A model generated the notes under the pieces. That model searched no databases. It saw only the letters and a program-made list of their open reading frames with translations, and was not told the origin of the DNA. Below are positions 19,788 through 21,322 of a stretch of DNA of 64,000 bases, piece after piece (positions within the stretch are counted from its first letter, which is position 1; each line of letters begins with the position of its first letter). Origin of the DNA: Porodaedalea pini (Eukaryota; Basidiomycota; Agaricomycetes; Hymenochaetales; Hymenochaetaceae); the NCBI GenBank assembly GCA_002794775.1, contig NBAY01000002.1, positions 930,001 to 994,000 of the forward strand, written 5' to 3'. The position numbers and the translations under genes were made by a program.

Positions 19788-21322
19788 ATGCAGTTCAAAA
19801 GGAACTTTGTCCTCTTTGTTATGGCTGCGGTTATGTCTGCCGCTGCGGCGAGTCCGGTGAGTGTACCATTTATTCCGAAGTTATTATCTCCTTCTCAATG
19901 TCGATGACTAGGTTCCTGGGAGCGCTCTCAGCGGCGTGACCCTCGACCTCGAGGCTCGTGAGCCCGTGATGAGGGGACGCAGCCCCGTACGGGTGTTTGG
20001 CAGAGACCCCAGGCACGGTGACTCTGGCTCGCGCGGCGGAAGCAACGACCGACTCGCAAAGAGGCGTCACGGCGACTCTGGCTCTCGCGGAAGTAGCAAC
20101 GATAGGCTTGCTAGGTTAGTAAGACTCTAATTACTATTCTGTCTAGCTTAAAGCTCATGAATATTGAAATTTCCATCCAGACGCCGTCATGGAGATTCCG
20201 GATCTCGTGGCAGAAGCAATGACCGCCTTACCAAGAGACGTCACGGTGATTCTGGATCTCGCGGAAGGAGCAACGACCGTCTTGCGAGGTTTGTATTACT
20301 TCCGTGTAATACGTATCATTCTTAACAATCTGGCTTAGACGTCGTCACGGTGATTCTGGCTCTCGCGGCCGAAGCAACGACCGACTTGCAAAGAGGCGTC
20401 ACGGTGATTCCGGTTCTCGTGGAGGCAGCAACGATAGACTTGCTCGACGCCGCCACGGGGACTCTGGTTCTCGTGGAGGAAGTAATGATCGCCTTACGAA
20501 GCGCCGTCACGGAGACTCAGGCTCGCGTGGACGCAGTAATGATAGACTCGCGAAGTTTGTCTTTTCTTTCTCATTCACCATGAACGTCTTTAAATACATG
20601 CAATAGACGCCGTCACGGAGACTCCGGATCGCGAGGCAGGAGCAATGACAGGCTTGCGAGGTATGTTTGTGTTCTTTTCTTTAATTTTCTTTAAAAGTAA
20701 AAACAAATGTATATTGATGCTAACGCCAGACGCCGTCATGGGGACTCTGGTTCTCGCGGAAGGAGCAATGACCGCCTCACTAAGCGCCGCCACGGCGACT
20801 CTGGCTCCCGCGGCCGCAGCAACGATAGACTTGCAAGGTTTGTATATTTTCTTTCTTTCAAATGTGTTTCTCCTGACCGTCTGGACCAGGCGCCGTCACG
20901 GTGATTCTGGATCGCGGGGCCGAAGCAACGATAGGCTTGTAAAGAGGCGCCACGGCGATTCTGGCTCACGTGGAAGGAGCAATGATCGCCTCGCGAAACG
21001 TCGTCACGGAGACTCTGGATCTCGCGGACGCAGCAATGACCGCCTTGCTCGCCGCCGTCACGGAGATTCAGGCTCGCGTGGTCGCAGCAATGACCGCCTT
21101 GCTCGCCGCCGTCACGGAGATTCAGGTTCGCGAGGTCGGAGCAACGACCGCCTCGCGAGAAGGCGTCACGGAGACTCGGGTTCTCGCGGCCGAAGCAACG
21201 ATCGCCTTACCAAGAGGCGCCACGGAGATTCAGGCTCTCGCGGTCGGAGTAATGATCGCTTGACGAAGCGCCGGCATGGCTCGGGCTCTCGCGGTCGCGG
21301 CGACTCTAGAGATCGCGTCTAA
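19788..21322 (+). CDS. Secreted precursor of tandem Kex2-type repeat peptides
   Basis: Seven exons: 19788-19856, 19912-20114, 20181-20288, 20339-20554, 20607-20660, 20730-20837 and 20890-21322. The six introns are 50-69 nt with GT-AG ends. Exon 1 encodes a signal peptide (MQFKRNFVLFVMAAVMSAAA). Exon 2 gives a propeptide of about 35 residues ending GRDPR, then the repeats. There are 18 full units with consensus RRHGDSGSRGRSNDRLAK, distributed 2+2+4+1+2+7 over exons 2-7, plus one shortened terminal unit ending DSRDRV. Each junction is KRR or RRR, a Kex2-type dibasic site. Cleavage and trimming would release about 15-residue hydrophilic peptides, HGDSGSRGRSNDRL plus A, T or V. All five introns between repeats are phase 2 and split the same Arg/Lys codon. 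Fungal Kex2-processed repeat proteins include pheromone and RiPP precursors, but these units have no Tyr, Phe, Trp or Cys. The function is unknown. Confidence 0.9.
20011..21319 (+). repeat. Array of 54-nt coding repeats interrupted by introns
   Basis: Nineteen copies of a 54-nt unit (the last one degenerate) encode the 18-residue peptide repeat. Variable residues are mainly the one after SRG (R, mostly; G in three units, S in one) and the LA/LT/LV plus K/R ending. Third codon positions differ widely between units, while the amino acids hardly vary. Units sit in blocks of 1, 2, 4 or 7 per exon. Confidence 0.95.

What the first reader, a model, noticed from the sequence alone, without database searches (positions are those of the whole stretch)
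19788..21322. Secreted precursor with 18 near-identical Kex2-flanked peptide units, no family recognised
Seen: a signal peptide, then 18 full units of the 18-residue consensus RRHGDSGSRGRSNDRLAK plus a degenerate last unit, all separated by KRR or RRR. Established knowledge: fungi make pheromones, dikaritin RiPPs and other secreted peptides from Kex2-processed repeat precursors. Inference: one transcript yields about 18 copies of a roughly 15-residue, polar, cation-rich, flexible peptide. The units lack Tyr, Phe, Trp and Cys, so the known UstY-type aromatic cyclisation and disulfide folding do not apply, and no such modifying enzyme is encoded nearby. The peptide class seems undescribed as far as I can tell.
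Basis: partly seen in the sequence, partly recalled or inferred. Interest (0 to 1): 0.88.

Follow-up and report, generated by a model that had tools for sequence, protein, structure and literature searches.

The report
Mushroom precursor of many secreted peptides
A mushroom gene appears to encode a secreted precursor that is cut into about eighteen copies of one short peptide; it belongs to a peptide family found across several orders of mushroom-forming fungi whose deposited gene models are often wrong, and what the peptide does is not known.

Summary
A seven-exon gene at 19788-21322 encodes 396 residues: signal peptide, pro-segment, 18 full units and a variant last unit, joined by KRR or RRR except before unit 1. 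Splicing restores the repeat at all five inter-unit introns. Units differ mainly at synonymous sites (mean pS 0.76, pN 0.07), so the peptide sequence is under strong purifying selection. No second copy was found in the 53.3 Mb genome.

The class is known: Kex2-processed repeat proteins (KEPs). This family was not found in print by sequence-letter searches or in the main texts of three KEP papers; their supplements could not be read. I found 34 related records, with 15 named species in 13 genera and five Agaricomycete orders. They share a leader, an RxPR or dibasic entry to unit 1, and [H/R]GDSxxR-like modules. Several deposited models read units in the wrong frame.

Best reading: a linear, unmodified secreted peptide, HGDSGSRGRSNDRL[A/T/V] in its main forms, acting as an extracellular signal or on neighbours. 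Processing and function are inferred. It is a new family of a known kind.

The parts
19665..19672 (+). TATA-like sequence about 120 bases before the ATG (candidate core promoter)
   Evidence: read directly; not tested
19788..19856 (+). exon 1: signal peptide MQFKRNFVLFVMAAVMSAAAASP
   Evidence: hydropathy; leader conserved in relatives and with no other match in this genome
19912..20114 (+). exon 2: pro-segment with RGRSPVRV and RDPR entry, then units 1-2
   Evidence: RGR[S/N]P in 19 of 32 relatives and RxPR entry in 19 of 32
20181..20288 (+). exon 3: units 3-4 (108 bases = 2 units, up to the shared junction codon)
20339..20554 (+). exon 4: units 5-8 (216 bases = 4 units)
20607..20660 (+). exon 5: unit 9 (54 bases = 1 unit)
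20730..20837 (+). exon 6: units 10-11 (108 bases = 2 units)
20890..21322 (+). exon 7: units 12-18, variant last unit HGSGSRGRGDSRDRV, stop codon
21591..21596 (+). AATAAA, candidate polyadenylation signal
   Evidence: read directly; not tested

Best explanation
The gene encodes a KEX2-processed repeat protein (KEP). Shown: gene model, repeats, selection on the peptide, single copy, family. Inferred: the precursor enters the secretory pathway; a kexin cuts after [K/R]RR (and probably after the RDPR before unit 1); a carboxypeptidase trims the basic tails; about 18 copies of linear HGDSGSRGRSNDRL[A/T/V]-type 15-mers plus one variant are secreted without ring formation. Most likely role, with less certainty: an extracellular signal between hyphae or a peptide acting on neighbouring organisms, delivered in many copies per transcript like the ascomycete alpha-pheromone, but not a mating pheromone.
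For: Exact repeat structure and splice restoration. pN/pS about 0.095 between units, with codon pairs at invariant residues differing at 0.559 against 0.638 for independent draws from the units' own codon usage and 0.710 from window codon usage, so the copies are old and each kept by selection. Hydrophobic N-terminus. Leader present intact in 13 of 32 relatives and recoverable from a shifted frame in P0011 and P0025. Junctions before HG conserved in relatives. Two proprotein-convertase P-domain loci in the genome. Neighbours with Pfam matches are housekeeping genes: THOC1, epimerase, biotin-dependent carboxylase, Sel1-repeat protein, PPIase, ubiquitin hydrolase. In Coprinopsis, Lentinula and Pleurotus, KEP peptides were detected by mass spectrometry as linear, minimally modified peptides (PMC9769878, Results parts 1-2 and Discussion read).
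Against: No transcript, secretome or protease data. The catalytic S8 domain was not seen in the six ORFs tested at the kexin loci, only the P-domain. Interior Arg residues are as invariant as the junction Args within this gene, so junction conservation here does not by itself prove cleavage. In PMC9769878 six kep knockouts in C. cinerea had no visible phenotype and the synthetic peptides had no antibacterial activity, so a signalling role is a guess.
Confidence: 0.72

Rival explanations
1. The protein is secreted but stays largely uncut and works as a disordered, arginine- and serine-rich wall or matrix protein; the basic runs are binding sites rather than cleavage sites.
For: The whole repeat region is very hydrophilic and interior Arg residues are as conserved as the junction Args within the gene.
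Against: Across relatives the basic pair directly before HG is kept at 44 of 45 later unit starts while the rest of the unit and its length vary; dibasic sites of this kind are cut in Agaricomycete KEPs (PMC9769878).
Confidence: 0.13
2. A precursor of modified cyclic peptides (dikaritin-type RiPP).
For: Same precursor layout as ustiloxin-type precursors (PMC7329392 abstract). The genome has UstYa-type genes.
Against: Units hold no Tyr, Phe, Trp or Cys; none of the 11 UstYa matches is on the window's contig; ORFs checked around the gene show no modifying enzyme (20 ORFs between 12 and 36 kb, not every ORF).
Confidence: 0.03
3. A cell-adhesion mimic: relatives often carry RGDS, the animal integrin-binding motif (recalled), so the peptide acts on animals such as nematodes or insects.
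For: RGD in 37 of 94 units against 8.0 in within-unit shuffles, maximum 17.
Against: In the window gene only 1 of 19 units has RGD. The excess is explained by the unit's own make-up, two GDSxxR modules in tandem, which puts R before GDS (47 of 68 units in relatives fit a two-module pattern, 16 a one-module pattern, 5 neither). The units are related by descent, so the shuffle overstates the excess.
Confidence: 0.02
4. A chance or recently amplified repeat in non-coding DNA read as a gene.
For: Tandem repeats are common in fungal genomes (general knowledge).
Against: Synonymous saturation with invariant residues, exact splice restoration, start and stop in place; relatives in five orders.
Confidence: 0.01

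Closest known systems
KEX2-processed repeat proteins (KEPs) of Agaricomycetes (PMC9769878; PMC7329392; PMC6339444)
   Same: Signal peptide, at least three repeats of at least 8 residues between dibasic sites, no modifying gene cluster, single-copy gene.
   Different: The sequence letters GDSGSRG, HGDSGSR, HGSGSRG, RRHGDS and others searched were in no paper of the library bearing on fungi (one unrelated plant paper held 'ARRHGS'), and 'HGDS' and 'RRHG' are in none of the three main texts. The described motifs XSDW, AADW, APSW and the Tyr-rich type G-1 differ. Supplementary tables of those papers, which may list members, could not be read.
Ascomycete alpha-type pheromone precursors (MF-alpha)
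   Same: Works alike: many copies of a linear peptide cut from a secreted precursor at dibasic sites.
   Different: No Pfam match above cut-off; no XA/XP dipeptides after the junction; no Trp or Cys in the peptide. Basidiomycete mating pheromones are a different, non-KEP kind (PMC6339444).
Ustiloxin-type (dikaritin) RiPP precursors
   Same: Signal peptide and Kex2-flanked repeats.
   Different: No Tyr or Phe core and no neighbouring UstYa gene.
Relatives found here: e.g. Cubamyces lactineus P0001, C. menziesii P0002, Trametes sanguinea P0009, Lentinus brumalis P0007, Sanghuangporus baumii P0011, Sphaerobolus stellatus P0020 and P0023, Psilocybe cyanescens P0026
   Same: Leader, RGRSP pro-segment (many), HG[D]S-type units behind RR or RxPR.
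   Different: 12 of 32 carry a second dibasic site inside the unit followed by a [L/I][E/D]A spacer, which would make shorter peptides; in the window gene this site is a single Arg (NDRLA).

Membership tests
KEP (criteria of PMC7329392, section read) | signal peptide for the secretory pathway | tested here: inconclusive
   Hydrophobic stretch with mean hydropathy 2.6 near the N-terminus and a leader conserved in relatives; no SignalP run was possible.
KEP (criteria of PMC7329392, section read) | at least 3 tandem repeats of at least 8 residues between KR, KK, RK or RR, none over 100 residues | tested here: met
   18 units of 18 residues, junction [K/R]RR.
KEP | peptides actually released by KEX2 | not testable with these tools
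   Needs proteomics; the genome has two P-domain loci.
Dikaritin (ustiloxin-type) RiPP | UstYa/DUF3328 gene close to the precursor gene | tested here: not met
   11 matches in the genome on contigs C76, C51, C19, C29 and C21, none on C2.
Dikaritin (ustiloxin-type) RiPP | aromatic residue in the core for ring formation | tested here: not met
   No Tyr, Phe or Trp in any of the 19 units.
Alpha-type pheromone | MF_alpha sequence domain | tested here: not met
   Only a sub-threshold match to another family, E 0.045, 13.3 bits against a cut-off of 31.
Alpha-type pheromone | STE13 signature XA/XP after the Kex2 site | tested here: not met
   Units begin HG; a DPPIV-type gene exists in the genome on contig C47.
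Agaricomycete HGDS-KEP family proposed here | leader M[Q/F/L/K/H]F[K/N]..[F/L]..F[V/I]..A | tested here: met
   Window gene, and 13 of 32 relatives intact; many of the other records lack the N-terminus.

The most novel reading that the evidence does not exclude
An Agaricomycete-wide, probably very old extracellular peptide hormone family has been largely missed because introns sit between its repeat units, so gene finders drop or frame-shift the repeats. The intron layout may also set the dose: every inter-unit intron that is retained ends the protein after whole units (2, 4, 8, 9 or 11 of 18), and skipping exon 3, 4, 5 or 6 keeps frame and unit boundaries (16, 14, 17 or 16 units), so splicing could tune peptide number per transcript.
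Probability: 0.25. Interest if true: 0.72.

Novelty: new member of a known kind. Interest (0 to 1): 0.46.

Why it matters
KEPs are a large class whose roles are mostly unknown. This family is conserved over five orders, in this genome is single-copy, and has a clear predicted mature peptide, so it is a good candidate for a peptide with a general role in mushroom-forming fungi. The deposited models of several members are wrong in a systematic way, so annotation-based surveys would under-count it. The array is also a clear case of repeats that kept their amino acids but not their codons.

Tried and rejected
Sequence-letter searches of the paper library for the unit found no fungal paper (the single hit is a finger-millet paper). 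Two further literature searches for related work gave no paper on this family among those listed. PDB profile search gave no match at E 0.1. Pfam gave nothing above cut-off for the window protein and four relatives. No structure prediction was run: the repeats look disordered and a model would say little. Distance between units does not grow with separation along the array (Mantel r 0.04, p 0.30), so no local-duplication history can be read. The RGD reading was tested and set aside. Host identity was not settled: the Sanghuangporus record shares the last-unit form, which hints at that neighbourhood but is no proof. All three protein searches scored only about 8,000 candidates each out of a larger set, so the family is probably larger than counted.

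Full report
What is there. The gene runs from 19788 to 21322 on the + strand in seven exons (19788-19856, 19912-20114, 20181-20288, 20339-20554, 20607-20660, 20730-20837, 20890-21322) and encodes 396 residues. Intron 1 is phase 0 behind the signal peptide; introns 2-6 are all phase 2 in the first basic codon of a junction. The internal exons 3-6 hold 2, 4, 1 and 2 units, so exon and unit boundaries run in step. Splicing restores [K/R]RR at each of the five junctions. The junction residues in order are K R K R K R K K R K R K K R R R K K.

Is it more than chance. Between the 18 units mean pS is 0.76 and mean pN 0.072, ratio 0.095; 151.5 of 186 changes from the consensus are synonymous where 26.5% of sites are. 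The changes are not independent, so no exact probability should be read from this. At the 15 invariant residues codon pairs differ in 0.559 of comparisons, against 0.638 for random draws from the units' own codon usage and 0.710 from the usage of ten other ORFs of the window. The copies are therefore old, nearly saturated at silent sites, and held to one amino-acid sequence. There is no sign that neighbouring units are more alike, so recent homogenisation is not visible; a few pairs are closer than the rest (units 1 and 5 differ at 4 of 54 bases, 14 and 15 at 6).

Copy number and surroundings. A degenerate pattern for the unit has 18 matches in the genome, all in this gene, and none for the reversed control. 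A protein search gives only this locus plus one weak match at E 0.08 on another contig. The leader alone also matches only here. Pfam matches near the gene are THO complex subunit 1, NAD-dependent epimerase, a biotin-dependent carboxylase, a Sel1-repeat protein, a WW-PPIase and a ubiquitin hydrolase (20 ORFs given). UstYa has 11 matches in the genome, none on contig C2. P-domains of proprotein convertases lie at two loci; the catalytic domain was not seen in the ORFs tested there. A DPPIV-type gene lies on contig C47.

The family. Three protein searches gave 34 records. Fifteen named species in 13 genera: Cubamyces lactineus, C. menziesii, Trametes punicea, T. sanguinea, Lentinus brumalis, Steccherinum ochraceum, Phlebiopsis gigantea, Grifola frondosa (Polyporales), Sanghuangporus baumii (Hymenochaetales), Ramaria rubella (Gomphales), Sphaerobolus stellatus (Geastrales, two records), Mycena venus, Psilocybe cyanescens, Lentinula lateritia and Paramarasmius palmivorus (Agaricales). 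Orders were looked up for all but C. menziesii and the two Trametes species, whose order is recalled. Two records (P0005, P0006) are chimeras and were left out of the counts below. Of 32 relatives, 13 have an intact leader of the same pattern, 19 have RGR[S/N]P and 19 an RxPR entry to a unit. First unit starts follow PR in 19, RR in 11, RK in 1 and SR in 1 of 32; later ones follow RR in 44 of 45. R-X-X-R is the minimal furin site (PMC8999023, passages seen), so the conserved RDPR is a plausible cut before unit 1. Units in 47 of 68 cases fit two GDSxxR-like modules in tandem, 16 fit one, 5 neither. 12 of 32 relatives have an extra RR inside the unit followed by an [L/I][E/D]A spacer; in the window gene this is a single Arg followed by LA, so its predicted peptide is longer.

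Wrong gene models. In six relatives chosen because their C-terminal parts looked foreign (of 34), the tails were tested for codons that would spell a unit in another frame. For the motif RHG[S/D][G/S/A]SRG the hits against shuffled means were 5 against 0.21 (P0001), 4 against 0.08 (P0002), 4 against 0.13 (P0004), 2 against 0.007 (P0015), 1 against 0.06 (P0003) and 0 against 0.1 (P0017); for RRHGxS they were 10 against 1.3, 5 against 1.1, 6 against 0.9, 2 against 0.18, 6 against 0.8 and 5 against 0.6. P0002's second figure lies within its shuffles' maximum of 6, and P0015's 2 equals its maximum. The N-terminal parts of P0011 and P0025 fit the leader in another frame (shuffle means 0.002 and 0). 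A scan for RR[D/E..]V, where V could be an intron's GT, gave 20 rows; 3 rows (P0018 twice, P0020) look like real coding and were dropped, leaving 17 rows in 14 records; in P0007, P0015 and P0022 the reading returns at Q-LEARRH, as a retained intron ending CAG would. This is protein-level inference; the relatives' DNA was not at hand. In these relatives the intron would lie just before the LEARR spacer, not in the junction codon as here.

How it most likely works. The layout is that of a KEP. In Agaricomycetes KEP peptides have been found by mass spectrometry as linear, minimally modified peptides in culture fluid and tissues, the six kep knockouts made in Coprinopsis showed no visible phenotype, and the peptides tested had no antibacterial activity (PMC9769878; outline, Results parts 1-2 of 3 and Discussion read). 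By analogy the window gene should yield up to 19 linear peptides, nine of the 18 full units being HGDSGSRGRSNDRLA, four ...LT, one ...LV, three with G (two LA, one LT) and one with S at position 9. What they do is open; an extracellular signal or an effect on neighbours fits best with conservation, copy number and polar character. Ring formation and mating-pheromone roles are unlikely.

Splicing as a dose control is a bold but open reading: retaining introns 2-6 gives precursors of 2, 4, 8, 9 or 11 whole units, retaining intron 1 gives none, and skipping exons 3-6 keeps frame and units, while skipping exon 2 breaks the frame. No transcript data exist here to test it.

Known or new. The class was defined in PMC6339444 and surveyed in PMC7329392 (7878 KEPs, 838 types; abstract and Results section read). 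Their main texts do not show this unit, nor does PMC9769878. Supplementary lists were not readable, so members may already be listed there without a name. I therefore call it a new family of a known kind.

Noticed in passing
window:45616-47685 (-): Copia-type reverse transcriptase (RVT_2) and retroviral SH3-like domain in the AT-richer stretch at 46-48 kb.
   Followed up: partly
window:48106-48780 (-): Tf2-1-like SH3 and chromo domain, as in Gypsy-type chromoviral elements, directly beside the Copia-type piece.
   Followed up: partly
P0005 and P0006 (metagenome records): WD-repeat protein fragments that end in HGDSGSRGRSNDH-type KEP units; the closest gene in this genome (L022, contig C126) matches only the WD part, residues 1-189. 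They look like chimeric or rearranged copies in a relative.
   Followed up: partly
window:20736-21206 (-): A 156-residue open frame on the opposite strand of the repeats, a by-product of the repeat's codon make-up.
   Followed up: no
window:12070-12744 (-): Fragment with a C-5 cytosine DNA methylase match, E 5.8e-6.
   Followed up: no
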